A stretch of DNA of 40,629 nucleotides from Flavobacteriales bacterium (GTDB lineage Bacteria > Bacteroidota > Bacteroidia > Flavobacteriales_F > PHOS-HE28): positions 1 to 40,629 of the forward strand of contig JADZAC010000018.1 in NCBI GenBank assembly GCA_020852835.1, written 5' to 3'. The first letter of the stretch is position 1. Every line of letters starts with the position of its first letter. Position numbers and translations under genes: made by a program. Shown one piece after another: positions 1 to 19,808 of this stretch. A model generated the notes under the pieces. That model was not told the origin of the DNA. It did no database searches and saw nothing but the letters and a program-made list of their open reading frames with translations.

Positions 1-929
1 ACGTGATCACCCCCAGCGCCGCCCTCACCTACTTGCCCGGCAAGGACACCCGCATCTTCGGGCCATTCGGCACCGAAGGCAGCTACGGCAGCTATTCGCC
101 GTACGACATCGGCCTCTACGGACAGCCATCGCCCAACGCCAGCGGCCTGGTATCGCTGGGACTGGTACAAAGCCTGGAAGGCAAGATGGCGGCGCGCAAG
201 CCCGATGCCGCCGGGGAGGAGCGCTTCACCAAGATCAAGTTCATGGACTACCTCGGCATCAACGCCAACTACGACCTGCTGAAGGATTCCGTGCGCTGGT
301 CGCCCGTGGGCATCGCCGCCCGCACGCGCCTGCTGGACTTCCTGGACCTGAACCTGGGCAGCACCTGGAACCCCTACGCCACCGATAGCCTAGGCCTGAA
401 CGTGGACCGGCCCACCCGCACGGTGGACGGCTCCCTGGCCCACCTGCAAAGCGCCACCGCCGCGCTGGGCTTCGAGCTCCAGAGCAAGCGCTACGGCACG
501 GCCACCGGGGAGCAGGGCAGCAACGGCCCGGTAGTGGCCGAGGCCGACCCCGACAAGGGCGCCCGCATCAACTTCAGCCTGCCCTGGCACCTGCGGGTGA
601 ACTACAGCTGGAGTATGACCCGCAACTACCGCATGGCCGAATACACCGAACAGCAAACCCAGAGCGTGCTCTTCAGCGGCGACCTAAACATCCTCCAGCA
701 CTGGAAGCTCGGCTTCAGCAGCGGCTACGACATGGAGGCCGACGAGTGGACGCCCACCTCACTGAACCTCTACTGGGACCTGCACTGCTGGGAGTTCAAC
801 GCCAACGTGATCCCCCTGGGCGCCCGCAAGAGTTTCACCTTCCGCATCAACGTGAAGGCCAGCATCCTACATGACCTGAAGTACGAGCTGCGCAAGCCGT
901 TCGGGAACAACGAGGAGTTGTTGTATTAG
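1..929 (+). CDS. lptD: LPS-assembly protein LptD, C-terminal part (5' truncated by window)
   Basis: The frame is open from the first base, so only the last ~309 residues of an outer-membrane LptD (the barrel that inserts LPS into the outer leaflet) are present. Seen: alternating amphipathic beta-strand sequence without long hydrophobic helices, a block NYDLLKDSVRWSPVGI typical of Bacteroidota LptD barrels, and a closing strand pair containing LYWDLHCWEFNANVIPLG followed by the near-terminal KASILHDLKYEL. The WDLHCWE...PxG...F.I.VKAxILxDLK ending is the signature I rely on from knowledge of the family. The stop is TAG at 927-929, immediately followed by a G-rich repeat. The last 24 codons occur again at 4951-5026 (see findings). 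The main alternative would be another large barrel such as a SprA-like protein, but the C-terminal motif argues for LptD. Confidence 0.8.
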   Translation, partial: VITPSAALTYLPGKDTRIFGPFGTEGSYGSYSPYDIGLYGQPSPNASGLVSLGLVQSLEGKMAARKPDAAGEERFTKIKFMDYLGINANYDLLKDSVRWSPVGIAARTRLLDFLDLNLGSTWNPYATDSLGLNVDRPTRTVDGSLAHLQSATAALGFELQSKRYGTATGEQGSNGPVVAEADPDKGARINFSLPWHLRVNYSWSMTRNYRMAEYTEQQTQSVLFSGDLNILQHWKLGFSSGYDMEADEWTPTSLNLYWDLHCWEFNANVIPLGARKSFTFRINVKASILHDLKYELRKPFGNNEELLY

Positions 930-985
930 GGGAGTAGGGCGTGGTTCGTAGGGCGTAGGACGTGGTACGGAGGGTGTAGGGTGTG
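929..985 (+). repeat. G-rich GTAGGGYG intergenic repeat, copy 1
   Basis: Right after the lptD stop there is an imperfect short-period repeat built of units like GTAGGGCGTGGTTC and GTAGGGTGTAGGG. It contains six or more GGG/GGGG tracts on the plus strand. The same family occurs at 5026-5063, 7607-7667 and 28518-28543. It has no coding potential; it lies between convergent lptD and the S74-domain gene. Confidence 0.7.
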
Positions 986-1054
986 GGGATCACCACGGTG
1001 TGGTTCCAAGTTCCATCGAGGGGGGCTGGCTGGTGGTCTTCCTCTGAAAATCGG

Positions 1055-1082
1055 AAAAGCCGCCCTTTCCGGAGCGGCCTTC
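1055..1082. terminator. Intrinsic terminator between convergent genes
   Basis: Inverted repeat with GCCGC/GCGGC core arms (AAGCCGC against GCGGCCTT with one bulge) and a ~10-nt loop. Read on the minus strand the hairpin is followed by CTTTTCCG, so it best serves the 1108-3351 gene; it may also stop lptD transcripts. Confidence 0.6.
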
Positions 1083-1107
1083 CCGTGTGAAGAACAGCCA
1101 CACTCGT

Positions 1108-3351
1108 TTACCGCGCCACTTTCACGGCGCGCTGCACCACCACGGCGCCGTCCAGCAGGTAAGTGCACAAGTAGGTGCCCGCCGCCAACTTGGAGGTGTT
1201 CCACGTGTACTGGTAAGCGCCGGGCTCGGCCATCTCCTCGCGCAGCGTGGCCAAGGGCTTGCCATCCAGGGTGGCCACCTGCAGCACCACCTTGCCCGCC
1301 TGCGGCACGTAGTATGCCCACGTGGTAAGCTCGGCCACCGGGTTGGGGATGATCTGCAGGCGCTGTTCCTTTAGTTCTTCCGGTTGCATGCTCTGCTTGG
1401 GCGCCGTTCCATCCTGCGGGGCCATGCCGGGAGTGGCGGCGCAGCATTGCTCCACGCGGGTTTGGAGCTGGGCGATCTGCGCCTGCTGCGCCTGGAAACC
1501 CGCGATCAACAAGGGGATCAGCCCCTGATAGTTCATGGCCTTGAAATCGATCGCCGGGCTCAGCTCCGTACCGGCGCTGTCCGCCATGGCCGGCTGATGG
1601 ATGGTGGTGACCAGCTCGGGCACTACCGCTTCCACCTCTTGGGCGATCAGGCCGTACTGGTGCTCGGAGGGCAGGTTCATGTAGCTGAACGCTGCCTGGT
1701 TGAAGTCGTAGGTCTTCGGGCTCAACTGCATAAGCTTGTCCATGGCCGCATCCGCCGGCAGCTCCTCGATGTTCTGCTTGAATTGTTCATCGCTTGTGCT
1801 GAACACCGTGCCAGAAACGTACGTATTCCCATCGAAATAACCGGCCCACTTGGTGTGGCCGCCCGCCCCGCTGGTGTCCGGTCCCGTGGTGCGCCCATAC
1901 ACCCCGTAGCACACGGTAGTGTCGTCATCCGCCCGTGCAAGGCCGTACACCCCGGTGCGCTGGCCGGCAGGCACCGGTATGTTGCTTTGGTTCCCGGCAA
2001 CGCCGATCACGCCCACATTGCTTGTTGCCGTGCCCAAGCTGTTGCCCCGCACACCCCAACTATAGTTCACCCCATTGTAGCTTGCTCCTAGCACGCCGAA
2101 GGAAGTGCCAGCCACTTCATAGGCATGGAAATCCCCGGCGATGGCCACATTGCAGGTGCCGTGCGTAAGGGCTTGCACCCCGCGCGTGCTTTGGCCGCCG
2201 CCGCCGGTAACGTTGAAGCGGGCACCGAAGGCCCAGGTGCCGGCCCCGCTGGCCGTGGAGGCCGCCTCCATGCCGAAGGCCGATCCGCCCGTGCTGGTAG
2301 TGGTGACCACCAGCCCGTTGGCCAGGCCGGATTTGGTGACATCCACCCGCGCCCCGGCGGACATGTTGGCATTGCCATTGGTGTTGCGCACGTTCAGGCG
2401 GGCGGGTGCCACGCCGGAGCCGAGGTCCACGCCCATGCCCACGGCATCCACCACATCGGGGCAGTTGGCGCTGATCGGGCCAAAGGCCGTGGACACATTA
2501 TTGAACGGGCCGGGGTTCAGGGTCCACTCGCAATCCGCCGCGCTCGCGATCGCCGAGGCCGGCACCCATTTCACTACGCCGCGTTCGCCGCTGGGTTCCG
2601 CGGTCGTATCCACCACCATCACCACGTAGTCGCTGTCCGCCGGGGCATCATCGGGCAGTTGACGGATGCGCAGGCGGCCATCGAGCACGTCCAGACGTTC
2701 GGTGGGGTTGGCCCCTGCGGTGAACCAGTCGCCTACGCCCAGGTACCCTTCGTTACCACTGGTGTCAGGTACCAATCGCGCCACTTCCAGTCCATCAAGG
2801 GTATTGGCCACGCTGGTGTTGTTCGGTGTACTGGTGAACACAAAGCTCAGGGGATCCGGCCCGGCATTGTCGTCATCGGACCAGTTCACCACGCCCTGCG
2901 TCTGGGTACCACGTAAGCGCATACCGGTGTACAGCCCGTCGGTGCCTTGGGTGAAGAAGGCACCCACCCGCATCCAAGGCCGGTAGCCCACCGTGATGCC
3001 ATTCAGTGAAGCGCTGTTCACATGCAGGTAGGTGAGCGGCGGGTTCGGCACAGGATTGCCTATGCCCAGGTGCCCGCTGAAATCCAGATTGTTCTGCTGG
3101 TACCACGCCCAGTTCTGGTTGACCAACGTGGGGGACAACTGCATCCGCTGGATGCTGTCCGTGTACCACTGGATCGGGTAGTTGCCGTTGTGGCGCACTT
3201 CCAAGGGTACCGTGGTGGCCCCATTCCAGCCCACAAAGTTGTTGGTGCCGAATGGGAAATTGTTGGGGGTTGTCACTTGTGCCTGAATGTGCCCAACCGC
3301 ACACACAGCAATAATCAGGGTACACGCCCTGAAGAAACTTCCTGTTCTCAT
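1108..3351 (-). CDS. Secreted protein with peptidase S74 chaperone domain and T9SS type A sorting domain
   Basis: A 747-residue protein. Residues 1-25 are a signal peptide ending ...VGHIQAQ. Residues ~26-510 are a Gly/Asn/Thr-rich, beta-structured passenger with repeated VGV/GVYG-type short motifs, as in phage tail-fibre or adhesin-like stalks. Residues ~520-615 match the S74 intramolecular chaperone auto-processing domain: SDEQFKQNIEEL carries the Ser520-Asp and Lys525 of the known Ser/Lys auto-cleavage site, followed by YGLIAQEVEAVVPELV. A short coiled coil (QAQQAQIAQLQTRVEQ, ~620-636) follows. The last ~80 residues (IIPNPV... GTYLCTYLLDG...) are a T9SS type A CTD. It lies 42 bp after the co-directional 3394-4416 gene, and no promoter-like box is visible in that gap, so co-transcription is likely. 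Exact substrate or role unknown; a surface fibre or adhesin is the likely class. Confidence 0.85.
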   Translation of the reverse strand: MRTGSFFRACTLIIAVCAVGHIQAQVTTPNNFPFGTNNFVGWNGATTVPLEVRHNGNYPIQWYTDSIQRMQLSPTLVNQNWAWYQQNNLDFSGHLGIGNPVPNPPLTYLHVNSASLNGITVGYRPWMRVGAFFTQGTDGLYTGMRLRGTQTQGVVNWSDDDNAGPDPLSFVFTSTPNNTSVANTLDGLEVARLVPDTSGNEGYLGVGDWFTAGANPTERLDVLDGRLRIRQLPDDAPADSDYVVMVVDTTAEPSGERGVVKWVPASAIASAADCEWTLNPGPFNNVSTAFGPISANCPDVVDAVGMGVDLGSGVAPARLNVRNTNGNANMSAGARVDVTKSGLANGLVVTTTSTGGSAFGMEAASTASGAGTWAFGARFNVTGGGGQSTRGVQALTHGTCNVAIAGDFHAYEVAGTSFGVLGASYNGVNYSWGVRGNSLGTATSNVGVIGVAGNQSNIPVPAGQRTGVYGLARADDDTTVCYGVYGRTTGPDTSGAGGHTKWAGYFDGNTYVSGTVFSTSDEQFKQNIEELPADAAMDKLMQLSPKTYDFNQAAFSYMNLPSEHQYGLIAQEVEAVVPELVTTIHQPAMADSAGTELSPAIDFKAMNYQGLIPLLIAGFQAQQAQIAQLQTRVEQCCAATPGMAPQDGTAPKQSMQPEELKEQRLQIIPNPVAELTTWAYYVPQAGKVVLQVATLDGKPLATLREEMAEPGAYQYTWNTSKLAAGTYLCTYLLDGAVVVQRAVKVAR

Positions 3352-3384
3352 GGTCTTTCGTGCTTGTTGTTCAACCGAAAGACC
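3352..3384 (-). promoter_or_regulatory. Perfect 9-bp hairpin abutting the start codon
   Basis: GGTCTTTCG at 3352-3360 and CGAAAGACC at 3376-3384 are exact reverse complements with a 15-nt loop. On the minus strand the 3' arm ends at the base before the ATG of the S74-domain gene, and the hairpin sits between that gene and the upstream T9SS gene. It could attenuate or terminate the upstream transcript or control translation of the downstream gene; there is no U-tract. Confidence 0.5.
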
Positions 3385-3393
3385 GGACAGCAG

Positions 3394-4416
3394 CTACTCG
3401 ATCAATACGAACTTGTACGAACGACTCTCCCCGGAACGCACCAACTGCAATACGTACATCCCCCTTGACCAGTCCCCGACATATAGGTCCACGCGTCCAT
3501 CCGAGGATGTTCCTGTCCACACGCATCTGCCCACCGCATCCAGAACGGAAAGGTGGATCCCCGTGGCCACTCCGATCAAGCTGAGCCTGTCCCTGGCGGG
3601 GTTCGGATATAGGTGGGGTGCTTCAACTTCCCAATCTGGCATGGATGCTGAGAGCGGACAACCCGATGGATCCGTGCTCACACATACATTGTCGACCAGG
3701 GTATACGCCAGTGGGTTCCACGGGAAATCCGCGAAGTGCAGCGTGTCGGTACCGGCATTATTGAACTGGTTTCCGACCATCACGTATTGGTAGGCACTAT
3801 CTGCCACGAAACTGCCGCTCACCAGCATCCATTCCACTGTATCCGACAGGATCGCAGGGTAGTGGACCTGTGCATGCCCAACCCCCATCGGCACCGGATC
3901 ACCCACTTCCCATTGCCGCGCTTGCATGGTGAACAGCAGGCCAACCCCGCTGCTTGCCAACCATAGCTGGGGATAGGTTTCGCTACCGCCCCAGCCCGCG
4001 TTCGCATAGAAGCTGGCGTAATAGGTCTGCCCGGGTATCAACGGTTCCACCAGTTCAGTCATGAAATACTCCCGGGCACCGTACATCTGGTCGTAGGTGA
4101 TCACCCCTGCAAAGGCTTCCCCATCCTGGGGGGACTGATAGCAGCAATAGCTCAACGGGACGCCAAAGGAAGCTCCACTGCCTAAGCACATTTGGTAATA
4201 GTCGGGGGTCCAACCGGCAGAGAACCATCCCAATGGTCCCGTATCCGGATAGTGTACTTGGTTGAGCCCGGAGCACGTGTCACGGATCTCGAAGGAATGG
4301 TTCGGTACCAAATTGCCCTGCGCTTCGCAGCGGAGGGTTGCAACAAACCCCAAGCAGCCCAGTAGCCAGGCAAGCCCGTTACTGTGTCGCTTGAAGTTCG
4401 TTGCACGAGAGTTCAT
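3394..4416 (-). CDS. Secreted T9SS type A sorting-domain protein with N-terminal NLVPNHSFE domain
   Basis: 340 residues when begun at the ATG at 4416, which gives a proper signal peptide (hydrophobic LAWLLGCLGFVATL then CEAQG); an upstream in-frame ATG at 4467 would put 17 extra residues ahead of it. After the signal peptide comes NLVPNHSFEIRDTC, the start of the galactose-binding-like module common in Bacteroidota secreted proteins, with many aromatic residues and several Cys (CSGLNQ, CYCCYQ region). The C-terminal ~75 residues (LYPNPARDRLSL... GMYVLQLVRSG...) form a T9SS type A CTD, so the product should be exported and cell-surface attached or released. Codon use looks more relaxed and less GC-rich than that of neighbours. 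Substrate unknown; carbohydrate or glycan binding is inferred only from the fold type. Confidence 0.8.
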   Translation of the reverse strand: MNSRATNFKRHSNGLAWLLGCLGFVATLRCEAQGNLVPNHSFEIRDTCSGLNQVHYPDTGPLGWFSAGWTPDYYQMCLGSGASFGVPLSYCCYQSPQDGEAFAGVITYDQMYGAREYFMTELVEPLIPGQTYYASFYANAGWGGSETYPQLWLASSGVGLLFTMQARQWEVGDPVPMGVGHAQVHYPAILSDTVEWMLVSGSFVADSAYQYVMVGNQFNNAGTDTLHFADFPWNPLAYTLVDNVCVSTDPSGCPLSASMPDWEVEAPHLYPNPARDRLSLIGVATGIHLSVLDAVGRCVWTGTSSDGRVDLYVGDWSRGMYVLQLVRSGESRSYKFVLIE

Positions 4417-4463
4417 CGTTCGTTCGTGTTGACCGGGGTAGCATGGCCCGGTCCGTGAAAAAT

Positions 4464-4471
4464 ACAACGTA
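4464..4471 (-). promoter_or_regulatory. Candidate -7 element for the T9SS cargo gene pair
   Basis: TACGTTGT on the minus strand, 47 nt upstream of the ATG at 4416. It is a weaker match to TAnnTTTG than most others in this window. Confidence 0.3.
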
Positions 4472-4628
4472 ACACACGTTCAACGCGCGTGCGTGTCTTC
4501 CCTTGCGGCGGCCGGGAGGGGCCTGGGCAATCGAATGAACAGCAGATCAGACGATCAATGCCCCGCGCTCCGATGGAGCGCACCTATTTATGGAAGGGTG
4601 GTGCTTGCTCCATGGTGAAACGAATTGA

Positions 4629-4664
4629 AGCCCTCACCCCGGCCCTCTCCCGAGGAGAGGGGGG
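4629..4664. repeat. REP-like palindromic element (CCCTCACCCC / CCCTCTCC-GGAGAGGG type)
   Basis: CCCTCACCCCGG is followed by CCCTCTCC, a CGAG loop and GGAGAGGG. This is the dispersed palindrome found in intergenic DNA of many unrelated bacteria, which gives spurious translations like ALTPALSRGEG. It lies between gene ends and is not protein coding. Confidence 0.6.
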
Positions 4665-4894
4665 AATGCAAATGCGGGTGGGCGGTGGAGAGTTCTGTGG
4701 AAAACACAAAAGCCGCAACCCATAGGGCGCGGCGAAAAGTCGTATCTTGTTGCGATGGAAAACTACCTGTGGCCCTGTGGCCCTGCTGGCGCAACGCGCA
4801 AGGCAAGTAAGAAGCTCCTGATCAATTGCGCGTTCATGATGGAACGAATGTAATGGAAATTATAGGGCGTGCAAACGGTGGTGGAAAGGTTGAG

Positions 4895-4943
4895 CCGCAG
4901 GGTCCGCTTTTGGCCAGAGGTTTTGGTTGGCGAGACCCTGCGG
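4895..4943. repeat. 10-bp perfect inverted repeat beside the lptD tail copy
   Basis: CCGCAGGGTC at 4895-4904 and GACCCTGCGG at 4934-4943 are exact reverse complements, 29 nt apart. The right arm ends 7 nt before the duplicated lptD tail begins. Confidence 0.55.
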
Positions 4944-4950
4944 GAGTGGA

Positions 4951-5026
4951 GAAGGCCAGCATCCTGCACGACCTGAAGTACGAGCTGCGCAAGCCGTTCG
5001 GGAACAACGAGGAGTTGTTGTATTAG
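4951..5026 (+). pseudogene. Duplicated 3' end of lptD (fragment)
   Basis: Bases 4951-5050 match 854-953 at 96 of 100 positions. The translated part repeats the last 24 residues of LptD exactly, including the stop. The two differences inside the coding part (CTA/CTG and CAT/CAC) are both synonymous. Upstream of 4951 the similarity stops abruptly, so this is a tail fragment with no plausible gene of its own; a TTG-started frame from 4826 runs into it but looks accidental. Confidence 0.8.
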
Positions 5027-5063
5027 GGGCGGAGGGCGTGGTTCGTAGGGTGTAGGGTGTGGC
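5026..5063 (+). repeat. G-rich GTAGGGYG intergenic repeat, copy 2
   Basis: Follows the duplicated lptD stop codon in the same register as copy 1 (GGAGGGCGTGGTTCGTAGGG, then TGTAGGGTGTGG). Shorter than copy 1. Confidence 0.65.
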
Positions 5064-5280: not shown

Positions 5281-7608
5281 ATGACCCCTACCGTACTTCA
5301 ACGCCTGGTGCTGGTTTGTGCACTGGTGCTGCCCCTGTCCCTGCTCGCGCAAACCGGCACCGTACGCGGTTTCGTGTACGATGAATCCACCGGTGAGCCG
5401 TCCATCTTCACCCCGGTATCGTTGTGGGGCACCACCAACCACGGGGCGCAAACCGATGTAAACGGTTACTTCTCCATCAGCAAGGTGCCCCCGGGCCATT
5501 ACACCCTGCGCATCGTGTACCTGGGTTTCGACACCTTGCAAAAGGAACTGGATATCAAGGCGAACCAGATCATCACGGATCAGCTGTACCTCAAAAAAGG
5601 CAGCATCCAGATGGACGTGGTGGAGGTGACCGCCGAACAGCAGAAAGCCAAGGAGAACGTACGGGTGGGCATCACCAAGCTCACGCCCAAGCAGATCGAA
5701 CGCCTGCCCGCCGTGGGCGGCCAGGCCGACCTGGCGCAATACATGCAGGTGGTGCCCGGGGTGGTGTTCACCGGTGACCAGGGCGGCCAGCTGTACATCC
5801 GCGGGGGCTCGCCGGTACAGAACAAGGTGCTCATGGACGGCATGGTGCTGTACAACCCCTTCCACAGCATCGGCCTGTTCAGCGTGTTCGACAACGACAT
5901 CATCCGCAACGCGGACATCCTCACCGGCGCCTTCAACGCCGAATACGGCGGGCGCATCAGCAGTGTGATGGACATCACCACGCGCGACGGCAACAAGACC
6001 CGCCTGGGCGGCAAGGTGAGCGCCAGTACTTTCGCGGCGAAGGCCCTGCTGGAAGGCCCCCTGAAGAAGCAGACCGCCCCGGGCAAGGGCAGCAGCTCCT
6101 TCCTGCTGAACTTCAAGCACAGCTACCTGGACCAGAGCAGCAAGTCACTATACACCTACGCCGATTCCAACGGCATCCCCTTCGCCTTCACCGACCTCTA
6201 CGGCAAGGTGTCCCTCAATGCGGCCAACGGCAGCAAGGTGAACTTCTTCGGGTTCAACTTCAGCGATGCCGCCCGCTACCGCGGGGTAAGCGACCTGAGC
6301 TGGAACAACTGGGGGGCGGGCACCAACTTCGTGCTGGTGCCCTCGGGCAGCGCCGTGCTGATCGAAGGCGTATTCGCCCTGAGCAACTACGATGTGGAAC
6401 TGCTCGAAGGCAACCTGCCCCCGCGCAGCAGCGCCATCAGCAACTTCAACGCAGGCCTGAACTTCAAGTACTTCCTGGGCAAGAACGAGATCCGCTACGG
6501 CATCGACGTCACCGGCGTGAACACCGACCTGAGCTACTTCAACTCCCTGGGGTACGAACTGCAGCTCCAGAAAGTGAGCACCGAGCTGGCCGGATACCTC
6601 AACTACAAGCTGCGCGCCGGCGATTGGGTCTTCGATCCCGGCATCCGTTTCCAGTACTACGCCACCTTGGCCGTAATGAGCCCCGAACCGCGCTTCGGCT
6701 TCAAATGGAACATCACCGACCGCTTCCGCTTCAAGGGCGCTGCCGGCATGTACACCCAGAACCTCATCGCCACCAACAACGACCGCGACGTGGTGAACCT
6801 CTTCTACGGCTTTATCACCGCACCGGACGACCTGCCCAAGACCATGACCCTGGCCAACGGCGAAGTGCGCGACATACAAGACCCGCTGCAGCGCGCCAAC
6901 CATGTGGTGGGCGGCTTTGAGTTCGACCTCAACTCCAAGACCAGCATCAACTTGGAAGGTTACCTCAAGGACTTCGACCAAGTGACCAACCTGAACCGCG
7001 AAAAGCTCTACAACGACACCCCGGAATTCATCAACAAGCCCGACGAGCTGAAGAAGGATTTTATCGTGGAGAGCGGCAAAGCCTACGGCGCGGACATGCT
7101 GGTGAAGTACGAGGACAAGGGGCTCTACCTGTGGATGGTCTATTCGCTGAACTTCGTGGACCGCTTCGACGGCAAGCGGACCTACAACCCCATCTGGGAC
7201 CGGCGGCACAACATCAACCTGGTGGCCAGCTACAGCTTCGGCAAGCACGACAGCTGGAAGGTGAACGCCCGTTGGAACTACGGCTCCGGCTTCCCTTTCA
7301 CCCAGAACCAGGGCTTCTATGAGCGCCTGCCCTTCACCGGCGGCATCGGCAGCGACATCAACTCGGCCAACGGCGACCTGGCCGTGATCTACGGACCATT
7401 GAACGGCGGCCGCCTCACCGACTACCACCGCCTGGACCTGGGCGTGAACAAGACCTGGAAGCTGGATGAACACCAGGTGCTGGAAGCGGACCTGAGCGTG
7501 ACCAACGCTTACGACCGCCAGAACATCTTCTACCGCGACCGCATTACCGGCACCGAAGTGTACCAGCTGCCGGTGCTGCCCAGCCTGGGGGTGACGTATA
7601 CGTTTTAG
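5281..7608 (+). CDS. TonB-dependent outer-membrane receptor with carboxypeptidase-like N-terminal domain
   Basis: 775 residues. Residues 1-23 are a signal peptide (LVLVCALVLPLSLLAQ). Residues ~26-105 are a CarboxypepD_reg-like beta-sandwich (GTVRGFVYDESTGEP... GYFSISKVPPGHYTLRIVYLGF). The plug follows at ~130-235, with LPAVGGQADLAQYMQVVPGV, GGQLYIRGGSPVQNKVLMDG and FNAEYGGRISSVMDITTRDG. The rest is a 22-strand-type barrel ending in an aromatic residue (GVTYTF), as outer-membrane barrels do. It imports an unknown ligand using TonB energy, or acts in surface uptake. No SusD-like partner is adjacent, so it is not a classical SusCD pair. A G-rich repeat starts at its stop codon. Confidence 0.92.
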   Translation: MTPTVLQRLVLVCALVLPLSLLAQTGTVRGFVYDESTGEPSIFTPVSLWGTTNHGAQTDVNGYFSISKVPPGHYTLRIVYLGFDTLQKELDIKANQIITDQLYLKKGSIQMDVVEVTAEQQKAKENVRVGITKLTPKQIERLPAVGGQADLAQYMQVVPGVVFTGDQGGQLYIRGGSPVQNKVLMDGMVLYNPFHSIGLFSVFDNDIIRNADILTGAFNAEYGGRISSVMDITTRDGNKTRLGGKVSASTFAAKALLEGPLKKQTAPGKGSSSFLLNFKHSYLDQSSKSLYTYADSNGIPFAFTDLYGKVSLNAANGSKVNFFGFNFSDAARYRGVSDLSWNNWGAGTNFVLVPSGSAVLIEGVFALSNYDVELLEGNLPPRSSAISNFNAGLNFKYFLGKNEIRYGIDVTGVNTDLSYFNSLGYELQLQKVSTELAGYLNYKLRAGDWVFDPGIRFQYYATLAVMSPEPRFGFKWNITDRFRFKGAAGMYTQNLIATNNDRDVVNLFYGFITAPDDLPKTMTLANGEVRDIQDPLQRANHVVGGFEFDLNSKTSINLEGYLKDFDQVTNLNREKLYNDTPEFINKPDELKKDFIVESGKAYGADMLVKYEDKGLYLWMVYSLNFVDRFDGKRTYNPIWDRRHNINLVASYSFGKHDSWKVNARWNYGSGFPFTQNQGFYERLPFTGGIGSDINSANGDLAVIYGPLNGGRLTDYHRLDLGVNKTWKLDEHQVLEADLSVTNAYDRQNIFYRDRITGTEVYQLPVLPSLGVTYTF

Positions 7609-7667
7609 GGCGAAGTTCGTAGGGTATGGGGTGTAGGGCGTAGTTCGTAGGGTGTAGGGCGTAGGCC
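7607..7667 (+). repeat. G-rich GTAGGGYG intergenic repeat, copy 3
   Basis: Starts within the stop codon of the TonB-receptor gene and carries at least five G-tracts in units such as GTTCGTAGGGTATGGGG and GTGTAGGGCGTAG. Same family as at 929-985. Confidence 0.7.
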
Positions 7668-7768: not shown

Positions 7769-9496
<1,728 letters not shown>

Positions 9497-9599
9497 GCCC
9501 TCCGGGCCCGTCTTGGTTGAGCCCACCGCCGGACTCCCGGCCGCCCTTCGCACATCCGGCAGCCCGCGAAAAACCCGGGCCCGGCAGCGGCGCTCGGGC

Positions 9600-9607
9600 T
9601 ATCTTCG
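9600..9607 (+). promoter_or_regulatory. Candidate -7 element for yidC
   Basis: TATCTTCG, 39 nt before the ATG at 9647. Confidence 0.4.
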
Positions 9608-9646
9608 CCCCCTTTCCCACCCCATCCTGCGCTTGTGCACAACAGC

Positions 9647-11530
9647 ATGGACCGTAATTCGATCATCGGCATCCTCCTCATCGTAGCCATCCTCTTCGGC
9701 TACCAGTACCTCACCATGCCCAGCGCCGAGGAGCGCGCGCGCATGCAGCAGGAACAGGACAGCATTGCCCAAGTAGCCATCCAGGAGCAGGCCCGCAAGG
9801 CCGACGCCGCACTGGCCGAACAGCAGCAACAGCTCGCCGCCGCCACACTCCCCGACGCGGCCGATACCACCGGCAAGGACAGCCTGAACACGGACAGCGT
9901 GCGCAACGCCCGCCTGCATGGCCGCATGGGCATCTTCGCCCAGGCGGCCCATGGCACCAACGAGGTGGTGGTGATCGAGAACGAACACCTCCAAGTGGCC
10001 ATCAACACCTTTGGCGCACGGCCCAACGTGATCCGCCTCAAGGACTACAAAACCTACCACGGAGGCAAACCCCTGCTGCTGGCCGTGCCCGACACGGGCG
10101 TGTACGAGTACAACTTCTTCTTGGGCAACCTGCGGTTGAGCACCCAGGACATGAACTTCACCGCTGAAAAGCTCGGCACCACCGGGGTACGGCTCAAGGC
10201 GGCCACCACCGACCCCGCGAAATACCTCCAGATCACCTACCAACTGGACAGCGCCAGCTGGTTGATGAACGTGAACACCGAACTGGTGGGCCTGCCCGAA
10301 GTGGACCCGCGCAACGTGATGTTCCACTGGAACCTCACCGGCTTCCACAATGAAAAGCACCGGCCCACCGAGCTCCAGTACAGCGGGGTGTACTACAAAT
10401 ACCTCAACGACGACCGCAACTACCTGAGCGAGACCAAGGACGACGCACTGAAGCTCGAGGCCCGCACCAACTGGGTGGCCTTCAAGCAGGACTTCTTCAC
10501 CGTGGCCATGGTGAACCCCGACGGCTTCTCCAGCAGCGGATCGGAGATCGCCATCACCACCCTGCCGGACGACACGCTGTTCTCCAAGCGCTACGAGGCC
10601 AAGCTCTTCTTCGCCCAACCGCCCAGCGAACGCGCCAACCTGGCCATGAAGCTCTACCTGGGGCCCAACCAGTACAACACGCTGCGCCAAACCGGCATCC
10701 CCGAGTTCAGCCGCATCATCGACCTGGGCTGGGGCATCTTCGGCTGGATGAACCGCTTTTTGGTGATCCCCATCTTCAACTTCCTCAGCCAGTTCAACCT
10801 CAGCTACGGCATCATCATCCTGGTACTCACCGTGGCCATCAAGCTGCTGCTGCTGCCCATCGCCTTCAAGAACCAGAAGAGCAGCCTGCGCATGCGCGCC
10901 CTCAAGCCCGAGATCGAAACGATCAATGCCAAGTACGGCAAGGACGACCTGATGAAGAAGCAGCAGGCCACCATGGACCTCTACCGCAAGGCCGGCGTGA
11001 GCCCCGTGGCGGGCTGCGTGCCCATGCTGCTGCAGCTGCCCGTGCTCTACGCCATGTTCCGCTTCTTCCCCAGCAGCATCGAACTGCGCCAGCAATCCTT
11101 CCTCTGGGCCGACGATCTGAGCAGCTACGACAGCATCCTGCAACTGCCCTTCAGCATTCCCGCCTACGGAAGCCACGTCAGCCTGTTCACCTTGCTCATG
11201 GCCGCCAGCACCATCATCTACACCTTGGTCAACAGCAAGCAGATGCCCCAGCAGCAGGGCATGCCGAACATGAAGCTGATGATGTACCTCTTCCCGGTGA
11301 TGATGCTGTTCTTCATGAACTCGCTGCCCTCGGGCCTGAGCTATTACTACCTGCTGGCCAACGTGATCAGCATCCTGCAGATGACCGTGATCAGCCGTTG
11401 GTTCATCGATGAGGAAAAGGTGCGGGCCCAACTGCTGGCCAACATGCAGAAGCCGCGCAAAAAGAGCAAATGGCAGCTGCGCATGGAAGAGATCCAACGC
11501 CAGCAGCAGCAAGCCCGCAAACGCCGCTAA
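9647..11530 (+). CDS. yidC: Membrane protein insertase YidC
   Basis: 627 residues from the ATG at 9647 (a GTG four codons earlier is less likely). YidC inserts and folds inner-membrane proteins alone or with Sec. Seen: an N-terminal membrane anchor (IIGILLIVAILFGYQYL), a Gln/Ala-rich linker, a ~280-residue periplasmic beta-domain of the Gram-negative type, then the conserved five-helix core starting near residue 355 with IPIFNFLSQFNLSYGIIILV, the cytoplasmic loop FKNQKSSLRMRALKPEI and LMMYLFPVMMLFFMNSLPSG. The C-terminus is rich in Lys/Arg/Gln, as expected for ribosome contact. The stop codon TAA doubles as the start of a promoter-like box for the next gene. Confidence 0.97.
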   Translation: MDRNSIIGILLIVAILFGYQYLTMPSAEERARMQQEQDSIAQVAIQEQARKADAALAEQQQQLAAATLPDAADTTGKDSLNTDSVRNARLHGRMGIFAQAAHGTNEVVVIENEHLQVAINTFGARPNVIRLKDYKTYHGGKPLLLAVPDTGVYEYNFFLGNLRLSTQDMNFTAEKLGTTGVRLKAATTDPAKYLQITYQLDSASWLMNVNTELVGLPEVDPRNVMFHWNLTGFHNEKHRPTELQYSGVYYKYLNDDRNYLSETKDDALKLEARTNWVAFKQDFFTVAMVNPDGFSSSGSEIAITTLPDDTLFSKRYEAKLFFAQPPSERANLAMKLYLGPNQYNTLRQTGIPEFSRIIDLGWGIFGWMNRFLVIPIFNFLSQFNLSYGIIILVLTVAIKLLLLPIAFKNQKSSLRMRALKPEIETINAKYGKDDLMKKQQATMDLYRKAGVSPVAGCVPMLLQLPVLYAMFRFFPSSIELRQQSFLWADDLSSYDSILQLPFSIPAYGSHVSLFTLLMAASTIIYTLVNSKQMPQQQGMPNMKLMMYLFPVMMLFFMNSLPSGLSYYYLLANVISILQMTVISRWFIDEEKVRAQLLANMQKPRKKSKWQLRMEEIQRQQQQARKRR

Positions 11531-11535
11531 CTTGC
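11528..11535 (+). promoter_or_regulatory. Candidate -7 element for the EI24-family gene, overlapping the yidC stop
   Basis: TAACTTGC; its first three bases are the TAA stop of yidC. 33 nt before the ATG at 11569. A perfect palindrome GCACCGG-C-CCGGTGC follows at 11534-11548. Confidence 0.35.
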
Positions 11536-11568
11536 ACCGGCCCGGTGCGGCCCCACCGGCGTTGGCAC

Positions 11569-12354
11569 ATGCAGGACCTCACGCGCGGCTTCCACGGCTT
11601 TTTCTCCGCCTTCGGGTTCATGCTGCGCCACCGCATGGCCTGGATGTTCGCCGCCCCCGTACTGCTGTGGGCACTGTTCGCCTTGGGCTTGTTCCAAGCG
11701 GGCACGGCCATCTCCGGCACCGTGGAGAACTGGGCCGCCCAGTACTTGGACCTGCCCGTGCCCGCCACGGAGCGCACCGGCTTGGCGGGCCTCTGGGACC
11801 AGGCCAAGGCCTTCCTGAACGGGGCCCGCGAGGTGGTGGTGTGGATCGCATTGAAACTGGCCATCATTGCCCTGGTGGCCCTGGTGGGCAAATACGTGGT
11901 GCTCATCCTGCTCTCGCCGCTGCTGGCCTATGCCAGCGAACGTGCCGAAGAGATCCTCACCGGCAGCGGCACCCCGTTCAATGTGGCCCGCTGGCTGAAG
12001 GAAGTGGGGCGCGGTATCCTGATGGCCCTGCGCAATGGCGCCCTGGAGACGACGATCAACGTGGCGGCCTGGGTCATCACCCTGTTCGTGCCGCTGCTGG
12101 CGCCCATCACAGCGATCTTCCTTTGGTTGGTTTCCTGCTGGTTCTACGGCTTCTCGATGTTCGACTACATCCACGAACGGCAACGTCTGGGCATCGGTGC
12201 CAGCGTGCGCTCCGCGCGCAGCAGGCAAAGCATGGTACTGGCCAATGGCTTGGCGTTCAACCTGCTGATGAAGGTGCCTGTGGCAGGCCTGATCATGGCA
12301 CCCCTGCTGGGCAGCGTCGGGGCCGTGCTGGCGGCCGCACCGCCACGCCGTTGA
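11569..12354 (+). CDS. EI24/CysZ-like integral membrane protein
   Basis: 261 residues, starting at ATG 11569 (MQDLTRGFHGFFSAFGFMLRH). The pattern is that of the EI24 domain family (bacterial CysZ, a sulfate permease, and its relatives): an amphipathic N-terminal segment, a first membrane span at ~25-45 (WMFAAPVLLWALFALGLF), a long span near 85-115 (IALKLAIIALVALVGKYVVLILLSPLLAYASE), two more around 155-195 (INVAAWVITLFVPLLAPITAIFLWLVSCW), then FYGFSMFDYIHERQRLG, a conserved feature of the family, and a final hydrophobic pair. No cysteine-biosynthesis gene lies nearby, so sulfate transport is not supported by context. It follows yidC closely and is followed by a small exported protein. Confidence 0.75.
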   Translation: MQDLTRGFHGFFSAFGFMLRHRMAWMFAAPVLLWALFALGLFQAGTAISGTVENWAAQYLDLPVPATERTGLAGLWDQAKAFLNGAREVVVWIALKLAIIALVALVGKYVVLILLSPLLAYASERAEEILTGSGTPFNVARWLKEVGRGILMALRNGALETTINVAAWVITLFVPLLAPITAIFLWLVSCWFYGFSMFDYIHERQRLGIGASVRSARSRQSMVLANGLAFNLLMKVPVAGLIMAPLLGSVGAVLAAAPPRR

Positions 12355-12385
12355 ACTTTGGGCCGGTCCGTTGCGTTGCAACGCC

Positions 12386-12751
12386 ATGCGCCCCTGGTTG
12401 CTGTTCACTCTGCTGCTCCCCGCCCTGCCGCTAACGGCCCAACAAAACGGGCCGTTGCCCGCAGGCAAAACCGCGGGCCAACGCATCCAGCTCATCGGCT
12501 CGGTTACGGACCAACTGACCGGCAAGCCCGTGTATGATTGCCTGGTGGGCTATTACAACGCGGACGGCAAACGCTTGATGGTGACCCCGGTGAACAGCGA
12601 TGGCCAATACGCCCTGTTCATCCCGGACCGGTTGCCGTTCGAGCTCCGGGTGGAACAGGAGAACGGCTACCTCGACCTGCACCGGCAGGTCATGGCGCTG
12701 CCTGAGGGAGATCCGCAACCCCGGATCGACTTGCACCTTCAACCCCGATAG
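12386..12751 (+). CDS. Small exported protein with carboxypeptidase-regulatory-like fold, function unknown
   Basis: 121 residues from ATG 12386; a signal peptide (WLLFTLLLPALPLTAQ) precedes a single beta-sandwich-like domain with IQLIGSVTDQLTGKPVYDCLVGYYNADGK and a GQYALFIPDRLPFELRVEQENGY segment, resembling the regulatory-like domains of carboxypeptidase D that are common in Bacteroidota exported proteins. Nothing catalytic is visible. It starts 31 bp after the EI24-like gene and probably shares its transcript; a strong hairpin terminator follows. I do not recognise a named family. Confidence 0.7.
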   Translation: MRPWLLFTLLLPALPLTAQQNGPLPAGKTAGQRIQLIGSVTDQLTGKPVYDCLVGYYNADGKRLMVTPVNSDGQYALFIPDRLPFELRVEQENGYLDLHRQVMALPEGDPQPRIDLHLQPR

Positions 12752-12767
12752 GCAGGCCCGGGAAAAC

Positions 12768-12798
12768 AGGCAGGCCGCCCTTGCGGGGCGGCCTGCCT
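12768..12798. terminator. Strong bidirectional terminator hairpin
   Basis: Perfect 13-bp stem (AGGCAGGCCGCCC / GGGCGGCCTGCCT) with a 5-nt loop between two convergent genes. The minus-strand transcript continues with GTTTTCC. Confidence 0.85.
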
Positions 12799-12818
12799 GA
12801 CGTTCCATGAGGGGCCGA

Positions 12819-15056
12819 TCAGGCCTTCTTCGCGGGCTTCTTCGGCGCAGGCACCTCGGCGGGTGCGGCCTCCACGGGAGCGGGTGCCATCACCTTGGGC
12901 GTGGTCACCAGGGTCATCTCGTCCACCAGGTGTTTGGCACCGGCAAACTTGTCGATCACCCACAGCACATAGCGGATGTCCACGCTGATGGTACGCTGCA
13001 GCTCGGGCTCGTACGAGATGTCGCCGCTCATGGCCTCCCAGTTGCCATCGAACGCAATACCGATCAGCTCCCCGTTGCCGTTGATCACCGGGCTGCCGCT
13101 GTTGCCGCCGGTAATGTCGTTCTCGCTGATGAAGCACACCGGCAAGCTGCCGTCCGCATTGGCATAGCGGCCGAAATCCCTGGCCAGCAGCAGCGCCTTC
13201 TCGCGGGCCGGCACGGTGAACTCGTCGCTGGTGGGGTCCTCTTTTTGCAGGATGCCCTGTTCGGTGGTGCGGAAGTCGTAGTGCACGGCATCCGCAGGGT
13301 AGTAGTCGTTCACCTTGCCGTAGGTCAGGCGCAGCGTGCTGTTGGCGTTGGGATACCACATTTTGCCGGGATCCATTTCACGCATGGCCGCCACCATCAG
13401 GCGGTAACCCCGGTTGATCTTCGTTTGTGCCTGATCAATGGCGGGCCCCAGCACGTTGCGGTACTGGTTCAGGCAGCTCTGCGTGGCCTGCATGGCCAAG
13501 TCTTTCTGCAGCACCTTCAGCGTGGGCTTCGCCAAGAAGGCCATCAGGCGCGTGCTGTCCGTGATCACGCTCGTCTTGAACATGGCTTCTGTCCAAGCAT
13601 GGAAATCCCCTTTGTACTTCTTGGTCACCGTAGCGATCACATCAGGTTGTTGGGCGGGGTCCACATCGCGGAAGATCATGCTGAACATGGCGGCGGTGAC
13701 CTCCTTGTCCGTGGCCGGGTCGTAGTCCTTCCAGAATTCGCGTGCGCTCTTGCGGGCCATGTCGGCCATGGCCGTCACGCGCGCGGTTTCCTTGGGGTCC
13801 TTTTCCAGCTGGCGCATCAGCCCGTACAGCCGGAAGCCGAACACCACGGCCTCGCTGCCGAAGGCGGCTTCCTGCAGGTAGGTGGAGGCCTTTTCATACT
13901 TGGCGCGCTCGGCATAGCCTTGGTCCAGGTCCTGTTCCAGTTCGCCATACTTCTTCTGGCGGGCGGGATCCGCGTTCACCCAGGCCATGAGGGTTTCTTC
14001 CTGCTGCTGTTTGCGCTCTTGCACGTGTTGGCGCTTGAGGCCCTTCTGCTGGCCGATGAAGTACTTCCAGTAGTTGGCCACCTGCGCGTCCTTGGCGGCG
14101 TATTTCAGGCGCACGGCATTGTCCGCGTCCATGTGTTTCTTGTAGATGTCGAGCTTCTCGCCGCGGATCTTCACGCGGGCGGGCTGCTCGATGTCCAGTG
14201 CCAGTTTCACCCCGTCGCTGTTGAGGAAGCGGTCGGTGCTGCCGGGGAAGCCCATGATCATGCTGAAGTCACCGTCCTTCACGCCATCGAGGCTTACGGG
14301 GAAATGCCACTTGGGCTTGAAGGGGACATTGGCCTCGGCGTATTCGGCAGGTTCGCCGTCCGGGCCGGTGTAGATGCGGAACATGCTGAAATCGCCGGTG
14401 TGGCGCGGCCACTGCCAGTTGTCCGTGTCACCGCCGAATTTGCCGATGGCATTGGGCGGGGTGCCCACCAGGCGCACATCGGGGTAGGTTTTGTACACGA
14501 AAAGGTAGAACTCGTTGCCTTCGAACATCACCTTGAAGTCGGCCTCGATGTACGGCTTGCCCTCGGTGGCCTTGCCTTCCAGGGCGGCCGCCATCACTTG
14601 GATCACCGAGTCGCGCTGGGCTTCGCTCATGCCGTCGTTCATGGCCGAGAGCACCGTGTCCGAAACGTCGGTGATGTATTGCAGGAAGCTCACGCCGAAT
14701 CCGGCAGGTTTCTCCTGGTCGCGGGTCATGGCCCAGAAACCGTTGGTGAGGATGTCATTCTCCACCGTGCTCAGGCTCTGGATGGCATCGTAGCCGCAGT
14801 GGTGGTTGGTAAGCATGAGGCCATCGGCGCTCACCACCTCACCGCTGCAGAAGCCGCCCCCGAGGCGGGCCACCGCATCCTTGATGCTGGCCTTGTTGAG
14901 GTTGTAGATATCATCGGCAGTGAGCTTGAAGCCCAACGCGCGCATCTGCGCCTCGTTCACCTGCTTCAATTTGTTCAGCAACCACATGCCTTCGCCGGCA
15001 AAGGCACTGCCTGCGGCAAAAACGGCCACCAGGGCCAATAAACGGACCTTCTTCAT
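12819..15056 (-). CDS. S46 family dipeptidyl-peptidase, DPP7-like
   Basis: 745 residues. A signal peptide (RLLALVAVFAAGSAFA) sends it to the periplasm, where S46 enzymes release dipeptides from peptide N-termini for amino-acid use. The catalytic triad is visible: His in TNHHCGYD (~85-86), Asp in WPRHTGDF (~222) and Ser653 in GGNSGSPVING. The N-terminus GEGMWLLNKL is the family start after signal cleavage. At +18 from the catalytic Ser, where DPP11 has the Arg that selects acidic P1 residues, this protein has Gly671 (AFDGNWE), as in DPP7, so hydrophobic P1 preference is inferred. The C-terminus carries an unusual Ala/Pro/Lys-rich tail (APVEAAPAEVPAPKKPAKKA) that replaces any T9SS domain. Confidence 0.93.
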   Translation of the reverse strand: MKKVRLLALVAVFAAGSAFAGEGMWLLNKLKQVNEAQMRALGFKLTADDIYNLNKASIKDAVARLGGGFCSGEVVSADGLMLTNHHCGYDAIQSLSTVENDILTNGFWAMTRDQEKPAGFGVSFLQYITDVSDTVLSAMNDGMSEAQRDSVIQVMAAALEGKATEGKPYIEADFKVMFEGNEFYLFVYKTYPDVRLVGTPPNAIGKFGGDTDNWQWPRHTGDFSMFRIYTGPDGEPAEYAEANVPFKPKWHFPVSLDGVKDGDFSMIMGFPGSTDRFLNSDGVKLALDIEQPARVKIRGEKLDIYKKHMDADNAVRLKYAAKDAQVANYWKYFIGQQKGLKRQHVQERKQQQEETLMAWVNADPARQKKYGELEQDLDQGYAERAKYEKASTYLQEAAFGSEAVVFGFRLYGLMRQLEKDPKETARVTAMADMARKSAREFWKDYDPATDKEVTAAMFSMIFRDVDPAQQPDVIATVTKKYKGDFHAWTEAMFKTSVITDSTRLMAFLAKPTLKVLQKDLAMQATQSCLNQYRNVLGPAIDQAQTKINRGYRLMVAAMREMDPGKMWYPNANSTLRLTYGKVNDYYPADAVHYDFRTTEQGILQKEDPTSDEFTVPAREKALLLARDFGRYANADGSLPVCFISENDITGGNSGSPVINGNGELIGIAFDGNWEAMSGDISYEPELQRTISVDIRYVLWVIDKFAGAKHLVDEMTLVTTPKVMAPAPVEAAPAEVPAPKKPAKKA

Positions 15057-19782: not shown

Positions 19783-19800
19783 GCCGTTTACAAGCGGCAG

Positions 19801-19808
19801 CGAATTTA
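19801..19808 (-). promoter_or_regulatory. Candidate -7 element for lhgO, overlapping the MFS stop codon
   Basis: TAAATTCG on the minus strand; its first three bases are the TAA stop of the MFS gene. 18 nt before the ATG at 19782. Confidence 0.45.

What the first reader, a model, noticed from the sequence alone, without database searches (positions are those of the whole stretch)
854..5050. T9SS cargo cassette bracketed by two copies of the lptD 3' end
Seen: bases 854-953 and 4951-5050 match at 96 of 100 positions, covering the last 24 codons of lptD, its stop and the start of the G-rich repeat. Both differences inside the coding part are synonymous third-position changes, which suggests that each copy diverged while it was a working lptD tail, not as neutral junk. 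Between them sit two minus-strand T9SS cargo genes and ~0.5 kb of non-coding DNA with a different codon feel. A gene-end target that is restored on the other side is the geometry of site-specific integration or of recombination between related strains. No integrase or transposase lies inside, so this would be a cargo-only or decayed unit, or a recombination-driven hot spot for surface-protein exchange. A 10-bp inverted repeat ends 7 bp before the distal copy.
Basis: partly seen in the sequence, partly recalled or inferred. Interest (0 to 1): 0.72.

Follow-up and report, generated by a model that had tools for sequence, protein, structure and literature searches.

The report
Cargo inserted behind copied gene ends
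In these uncultured sludge bacteria, small gene packages (surface proteins, toxin-antitoxin pairs) repeatedly land just behind essential genes by recombination that leaves a second copy of the gene's last 20-45 codons on the far side, showing how genes without any mobility enzyme of their own can still move between genomes.

Summary
In detail: the last 24 codons of lptD, its stop codon and about 36 bases beyond recur 4.1 kb downstream (96/100 identity; both coding differences synonymous), bracketing a Peptidase_S74 surface-protein gene and a T9SS-sorted gene. No integrase lies inside. Four relatives have the empty site (lptD directly before the TonB-receptor gene, one tail); six carry S74/T9 genes behind lptD, in most cases too diverged to be strict orthologues.

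The case is one of many. Two other genus members carry second lptD tails with other boundaries, one around a PIN toxin-antitoxin operon. A scan of 1.07 Mb of this genome found the same geometry at sucD, glyS and ffh, each around a toxin-antitoxin pair, and relatives repeat it at these genes. Copies differ mostly synonymously (pN/pS 0.26, P=7e-13; lptD 0.06), and similarity ends at the stop codon in 15 of 16 pairs. Donor-like and empty-site genomes exist for glyS: the product matches one up to the distal tail and the other after it.

Best explanation: imported DNA recombined in the conserved gene end as its only anchor, supplying a working end plus cargo and displacing the resident end. This is a new, recurrent variant of a known kind, not site-specific integration. 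Sub-mechanism unproven.

The parts
3..929 (+). 3' part of lptD (the gene starts on contig C32, which overlaps the window start by an exact 125 bp)
   Evidence: Pfam LptD_2; contig overlap
854..965 (+). proximal copy of the lptD tail (functional end of lptD, stop 927-929, plus start of the G-rich repeat)
930..987 (+). G-rich repeat (GTAGGGYGTRG type), dispersed in this genome; probably explains why similarity of the two tails runs past the stop only here
1108..3351 (-). secreted protein with Peptidase_S74 (intramolecular chaperone) domain and T9SS-type C-terminus; cargo
   Evidence: Pfam PF13884; weak NCBIfam T9SS C-terminus hit; multi-copy in genus
3394..4467 (-). T9SS type A sorting-domain protein (likely ATG start near 4416); cargo
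   Evidence: NCBIfam TIGR04183, Pfam PF18962 just under cut-off; multi-copy in genus
4468..4950 (.). non-coding spacer between cargo and distal tail; GC 58% versus 64% in lptD
4895..4943 (.). hairpin with 10-bp arms (4895-4904 / 4934-4943) at the end of the insert; role unknown, not seen at the other insert ends
4951..5062 (+). distal, displaced copy of the lptD tail (24 codons, stop at 5024-5026, part of the G-rich repeat)
5281..7608 (+). TonB-dependent receptor-like gene, the conserved right-hand neighbour; 254 bp after the distal stop, as lptD-TonB spacing is 245 bp in the empty site of G031

Best explanation
The bracketed segment is DNA imported from a related bacterium by recombination that used the conserved 3' end of lptD as its only anchor. 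Incoming DNA carrying a donor lptD end followed by the S74/T9 genes paired with the resident lptD end. The product keeps one full-length working lptD, then the cargo, and then the leftover second lptD end on the far side, followed by the old neighbour (TonB receptor). The far junction was made without long homology: either homology-facilitated illegitimate recombination of a linear fragment, or single crossover of an end-joined circle. No element-borne recombinase is needed. The same process works genus-wide at 3' ends of core genes (lptD, sucD, ffh, glyS) and mostly moves toxin-antitoxin modules. Shown: the geometry, its recurrence, selection on both tails, empty sites and donor-like arrangements. 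Inferred: the uptake route (transformation), the exact crossover type, and which lptD tail is resident.
For: Empty sites with one tail in G031, G018, G020, G007 and S74/T9 behind lptD in G028, G004, G002, G032, G006. Independent second lptD tails in G002 (-134..+3, 94.2%) and G021 (-108..+10, 95.0%, around one antitoxin-PIN operon). Same geometry in the own genome at sucD, ffh and glyS, each around a toxin-antitoxin pair, and at the same genes in relatives. Coding differences between copies are mainly synonymous relative to sites: pooled pN/pS 0.26, P=7e-13; lptD 0.06, P=1e-5; the four own-genome cases, found by DNA similarity, 0.21, P=4e-4; similarity stops at the stop codon in 15 of 16. In G004 and G025 glyS, G066 ffh and G006 sucD one or both copies are closer to other species' genes than to each other; in G004 the glyS body is about 91% like the panel, its functional 3' end only 54-78% for nearly all, the distal tail up to 88%. 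Three-way case at glyS: G000 is colinear with G027 over 1,411 bp (89%, gene end plus toxin-antitoxin pair, up to the distal tail), while its flank after the distal tail is colinear with G028, which has glyS without insert. The ComEC-type competence channel gene is present. E. coli precedent: recombination of fragments with one homologous lacZ end gave 109-950 bp gene-end duplications (PMC3240628).
Against: For lptD itself the two tails are closer to each other (97%) than to any relative, so donor and resident cannot be told apart, and no donor of this particular S74/T9 pair was found. In glyS of G000 the distal tail is nearer to G027 (0.89) than to the sister G028, so it is not simply a sister-like resident end. 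Some pairs (G027 ffh with 123 identical bp) would also fit duplication at the moment of insertion or later gene conversion. Cases found by protein search favour conserved tails, which lowers pN/pS somewhat.
Confidence: 0.72

Rival explanations
1. Insertion with long target duplication: the cargo inserts by a transposition-like process that copies about 70-140 bp of the resident target in place, as proposed for restriction-modification systems in Helicobacter.
For: Variable duplication length of the order of 100 bp, selfish cargo (toxin-antitoxin), no transposase; matches published descriptions (PMC3031569, PMC3874152).
Against: Fresh duplicates would be identical and the distal one would then drift without constraint; instead differences are mostly synonymous relative to sites and similarity ends at the stop codon. 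In four pairs the copies are closer to other species' genes than to each other.
Confidence: 0.14
2. Decayed or cargo-only site-specific integrative element with attachment site in the lptD 3' end, carrying a replacement gene end as phage 21 does at icd.
For: Gene end restored, direct repeat on the far side, synonymous differences between the copies.
Against: No integrase in any insert examined; the inserts in lptD alone carry unrelated cargo; the repeat start varies (-72, -108, -134) and the same pattern occurs at unrelated genes without a common core.
Confidence: 0.05
3. In-genome tandem duplication of the gene region followed by loss of most of the second copy, with gene conversion keeping the tails similar.
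For: G004 has a second, broken glyS copy downstream; part of the ffh pair in G027 is 100% identical over 123 bp.
Against: Inserts carry cargo that is foreign to the gene, empty sites are common in relatives, and a decaying copy should show amino-acid changes, frameshifts and similarity past the stop.
Confidence: 0.06
4. Assembly or binning artefact of a metagenome-assembled genome.
For: The window begins at a contig break inside lptD, and other contigs of this genome end inside S74/T9 paralogues.
Against: Same geometry in other assemblies, including G066 (9 contigs, case inside a 628-kb contig) and G004 (4 contigs); cargo and boundaries differ. The distal lptD junction is inside a 40-kb contig.
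Confidence: 0.03

Closest known systems
Homology-facilitated illegitimate recombination (HFIR) and single-crossover gene-end duplications (Streptococcus, Acinetobacter, Pseudomonas stutzeri; lacZ tests in E. coli, PMC3240628)
   Same: One homologous anchor in a gene end, foreign DNA joined without homology on the other side; the E. coli tests mostly gave gene-end duplications of 109-950 bp.
   Different: There it is a rare laboratory event; here it is recurrent in nature at the same few core-gene ends, with toxin-antitoxin and surface-protein cargo.
Insertion with long target duplication (Nobusato et al. 2000, cited in PMC3031569 and PMC3874152)
   Same: Selfish modules without transposase flanked by direct repeats of the order of 100 bp.
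   Different: Here the two repeats look like different alleles of a gene end (synonymous divergence, similarity ending at the stop), not fresh copies of one target.
Displaced gene ends in V. cholerae T6SS effector-immunity arrays (PMC5361080)
   Same: Incoming module uses the conserved upstream part as anchor and shifts the old 3' part downstream; repeated rounds make arrays (compare the extra glyS tails in G018 and G025).
   Different: Here the anchor is a housekeeping gene unrelated to the cargo, and the displaced piece is a useless tail, not an immunity gene.
Recombination hot spots at flanking core genes without mobile elements (PMC5635113)
   Same: Gene turnover driven by homologous recombination in core genes, linked to natural transformation.
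   Different: That model uses double crossovers in both flanks and leaves no scar; here only one flank has homology and a tail scar remains.
Phage 21 / e14 integration at icd (replacement gene end; from own knowledge)
   Same: Incoming DNA restores the gene end with synonymous changes and leaves the old end at the far side.
   Different: No integrase, no fixed core, unrelated cargo, several target genes.

Membership tests
Homology-facilitated illegitimate recombination / one-anchor recombination product | Homology to the resident chromosome on one side of the insert only | tested here: met
   Tail copies at one gene end; inserts unrelated to the resident right flank; right flank colinear with empty sites in relatives
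Homology-facilitated illegitimate recombination / one-anchor recombination product | Anchor sequence comes from a donor allele | tested here: inconclusive
   Supported for G004 and G025 glyS, G066 ffh, G006 sucD; not decidable for lptD
Homology-facilitated illegitimate recombination / one-anchor recombination product | RecA-dependent event during uptake of DNA | not testable with these tools
   A ComEC-family gene is present, nothing more
Insertion with long target duplication | Direct repeats of the order of 100 bp flanking a module without transposase | tested here: met
   70-141 bp repeats around toxin-antitoxin or S74/T9 cargo
Insertion with long target duplication | Repeats are copies of one resident target | tested here: not met
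   pN/pS 0.26; similarity ends at the stop codon in 15 of 16; some copies closer to other species
Site-specific integrative element at a gene 3' end | Integrase or recombinase inside, or a common crossover core | tested here: not met
   No such family in the two window cargo genes or in the inserts examined; boundaries vary
T9SS cargo protein | C-terminal T9SS sorting domain | tested here: met
   3394-4467: TIGR04183 29.6 bits over cut-off 23; for the S74 protein only a weak hit
Type II toxin-antitoxin module (cargo at the other gene ends) | Adjacent small antitoxin and toxin genes of known families | tested here: met
   PIN and PIN_3, DUF433+DUF5615, DUF6364+PIN_3, ParE; activity not tested

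The most novel reading that the evidence does not exclude
Cargo modules in this genus are 'addressed' to particular core genes: a given toxin-antitoxin family travels with the end of one gene (DUF433/DUF5615 with glyS, DUF6364/PIN_3 with ffh), so that a module without any mobility gene spreads between species by using the core gene behind which it sits as a homing anchor and by restoring that gene's end, with each round leaving a displaced tail as a scar.
Probability: 0.4. Interest if true: 0.8.

Novelty: new variant of a known kind. Interest (0 to 1): 0.6.

Why it matters
How chromosomal toxin-antitoxin modules and surface-protein cassettes without transposase or integrase move is an open question. 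The tail scars are a readable record of such moves: they mark the insert exactly, give its two ends, and tell the anchor gene. Because the scars recur at the same core genes in many species, the process can be counted across genomes and tested in a transformable laboratory strain. It also explains partial 'gene tail' repeats that annotation pipelines ignore.

Tried and rejected
Phage collection search with the locus: no match. The 10-bp hairpin as an element end: a core motif search found related GGGACCCTGC stretches in a few loci but not at the other insert ends. The G-rich repeat as recombination site: it is a dispersed intergenic repeat (22 TTCGTAGGG hits in 1.07 Mb) and is absent from the G002 and G021 junctions. 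Sliding identity along lptD, glyS, ffh and sucD of the own genome to find the crossover point: mosaic everywhere, no clean switch. The prediction that the distal glyS tail of G000 would be sister-like (G028) failed. Direct repeats on contigs C1 and C4 are REP-like repeats near IS200-like transposases, not tail scars.

Full report
OBSERVATION. The repeat is real. Bases 854-953 and 4951-5050 match at 96%, and they are the only two matches in the 3.44-Mb, 96-contig assembly. The block is 112 bp at 93.8%. It contains 24 lptD codons with two synonymous differences (CTA/CTG, CAT/CAC), the stop TAG and part of a G-rich repeat. Between the copies lie two minus-strand genes, one with a Peptidase_S74 domain, one with a T9SS type A sorting domain, and about 0.5 kb of non-coding DNA ending in a 10-bp-arm hairpin. 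The window starts at a contig break inside lptD; contig C32 overlaps it by an exact 125 bp. The relatives with named records are uncultured Flavobacteriales, several from activated sludge by their titles.

COMPARISON AT lptD. Of 45 genomes held for the genus (which is also the whole family here), 41 have a detectable lptD end and only three have a second tail: this one, G002 and G021. The three repeats start at -72, -134 and -108 from the last codon and are 93.8, 94.2 and 95.0% identical within each genome, so they are best read as separate events. G031, G018, G020 and G007 have lptD directly followed by the TonB-receptor gene, CTP synthase and yidC: the empty site. The spacing from the distal tail to the TonB gene in the window (254 bp) is like the lptD-TonB spacing in G031 (245 bp). 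G028, G004, G002 and, as far as their contigs reach, G032 and G006 have S74 (and T9) genes behind lptD; G005 has them a little further away; G013 has about 10.8 kb of other genes there. The lptD-linked cargo is not orthologous in the simple sense: the sister genome G028 is 93% identical in lptD but its lptD-linked S74 and T9 proteins are only 39% and 37% identical to those of the window, while T9 proteins at other loci of other species reach 58%. Both families have many copies per genome. In G021 the insert is exactly one antitoxin plus PIN-domain toxin operon.

THE PATTERN IS GENOME-WIDE. I scanned 1.07 Mb of the own genome (825 ORFs of at least 120 aa) for direct repeats of at least 55 bp, at least 85% identity and 150-20,000 bp apart. 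Besides lptD it finds copied 3' ends of sucD (70 bp, 98.6%, insert 797 bp), glyS (94 bp, 91.5%, insert 612 bp) and ffh (141 bp, 93.6%, insert 815 bp). Each of these inserts is a toxin-antitoxin pair: small gene plus PIN_3 at sucD, DUF433 plus DUF5615 at glyS, DUF6364 plus PIN_3 at ffh. A fifth candidate, a short copied end of a GH35 beta-galactosidase-like gene (named from its sequence only), brackets about 3 kb with a secreted-protein gene. None of the repeats marks a clear 5' gene end. Searching the genus with these genes gave more tails at the same genes: sucD in G002, G006, G062; ffh in G027 and G066; glyS in G004, G018 (two extra tails), G025 and G029. Cargo there includes a ParE-type toxin module, DUF433/DUF5615, the same PIN_3 family at sucD of G006 as in the own genome, a DUF4160/DUF2442 pair and a Sel1-repeat protein.

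WHAT THE TAILS SAY. For 16 proximal-distal pairs the differences are 58 synonymous and 54 amino-acid changing over 330 and 1,170 sites: pN/pS 0.26, P=7e-13. For lptD it is 10 to 2 (0.06, P=1e-5). For the four own-genome pairs, which were found by DNA similarity and not by protein search, it is 0.21, P=4e-4. In 15 of 16 pairs similarity drops to 10-40% in the 30 bases after the stop; only the window's lptD pair stays at 90%, where both copies run into the dispersed G-rich repeat. In ffh of G027 the two copies are identical for 123 bp and then encode the same last residues (Arg-Arg-stop) with different codons. Copies that diverged as coding sequences and stay alike only as far as the code does are best read as alleles from two lineages, not fresh duplicates. 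In G004 glyS, G025 glyS, G066 ffh and G006 sucD the copies in one genome are closer to genes of other species than to each other. In G004 the glyS body is about 91% like the other species, its functional 3' end only 54-78% for all but one of the 15 (the last at 21%), and the displaced tail up to 88%: a foreign end appears to have replaced the resident one.

DONOR, RECIPIENT, PRODUCT. At glyS, G027 and G023 carry the same DUF433/DUF5615 pair directly behind glyS with no second tail seen. The own genome is colinear with G027 over 1,411 bp (89%) from inside glyS through the toxin-antitoxin pair up to the distal tail, although the two species share only about 59% identity in LptD. After the distal tail it is colinear with G028, whose glyS has no insert. 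At ffh, the DUF6364 and/or PIN_3 genes sit near ffh in a dozen other genomes; by my count from the listed positions, 18 of 28 genomes with a toxin at least 60% identical have it on the contig of ffh within about 3 kb. G028, G032 and G024 look like empty sites at ffh, and sucD is followed closely by the next gene in G028, G031, G032 and G001. At lptD the donor-like arrangement is the single-tail lptD-S74-T9 order of G028, G004, G032 and G006.

MECHANISM. The best-supported reading is one-anchor recombination: imported DNA pairs with the conserved gene end, which is the only homology; the product keeps a working gene, gains the cargo and pushes the leftover gene end downstream. Selection explains why the scars sit at 3' ends: only products that leave the gene whole survive. 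Whether the second junction forms by homology-facilitated illegitimate recombination or by single crossover of an end-joined circle is open. The E. coli test of HFIR gave mostly gene-end duplications of 109-950 bp, which the authors explain by single crossover (PMC3240628). A ComEC-family gene is present, so uptake of free DNA is possible but unproven.

COMPARISON WITH WHAT IS KNOWN. It works like HFIR and like the module displacement proposed for V. cholerae T6SS arrays (PMC5361080). It resembles insertion with long target duplication (Nobusato et al. 2000, via PMC3031569 and PMC3874152), but the defining idea of a duplicated resident target is contradicted by the tails. It fits the finding that many hot spots lack mobile elements and recombine at flanking core genes (PMC5635113), with the difference that here one flank suffices and a scar is left. 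Site-specific integration is not supported. I therefore rate it a new variant of a known kind; the recurrent use of the same core-gene ends, and the link between cargo family and gene, are the new part. I found no paper in the held library that describes toxin-antitoxin modules behind duplicated core-gene ends, but the library is partial.

LIMITS. Nearly all genomes are MAGs, and no reads were available. For lptD in the window, donor and resident tail cannot be told apart, and the particular donor of its S74/T9 pair was not found. One prediction (sister-like distal glyS tail) failed. About 31% of the own genome was scanned. Toxin-antitoxin assignments rest on domain matches.

Noticed in passing
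G000 contigs C57, C34 and C2 (L063, L064, L065), last bases: Three contigs of the own genome end inside S74/T9 paralogues; two of them carry the last 70 residues of the S74 protein at 96-97% identity. The S74 family has near-identical C-termini with diverged bodies, which broke the assembly and may allow exchange between paralogues.
   Followed up: partly
window 930-987, 5027-5063, 7608-7665: Dispersed G-rich intergenic repeat (TTCGTAGGGYGTAGGG type), often right after stop codons; 22 core hits in 1.07 Mb of this genome.
   Followed up: partly
L086 (G000:C13) 220-277 and 3307-3364: Copied end of a GH35 beta-galactosidase-like gene bracketing about 3 kb with a secreted-protein gene; likely a fifth scar of the same kind.
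   Followed up: partly
L067 (G010:C1:2230-2240 kb) and L066 (G004:C1:1442-1451 kb): Tandem arrays of four or five T9 cargo genes, in G004 next to an S74 gene, in complete or near-complete genomes; possible source of exchangeable cassettes.
   Followed up: no
L074 (G000:C1) 19037-19958; L077 (G000:C4) 8209-14485: IS200-like (REP-associated type) transposases with REP-like repeats at both sides.
   Followed up: no
L110 (CAMCAZ010000042.1): Public record titled Chryseobacterium gleum encodes an lptD of this uncultured genus (56% aa to the window); the record is probably misnamed.
   Followed up: no
G000 C32/C18 (lptD) and C12/C37 (glyS) contig joins: Both scar-bearing genes are split by exact 117-125 bp contig overlaps about 0.8 kb before the stop, as expected if strains in the sample differ there.
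   Followed up: partly
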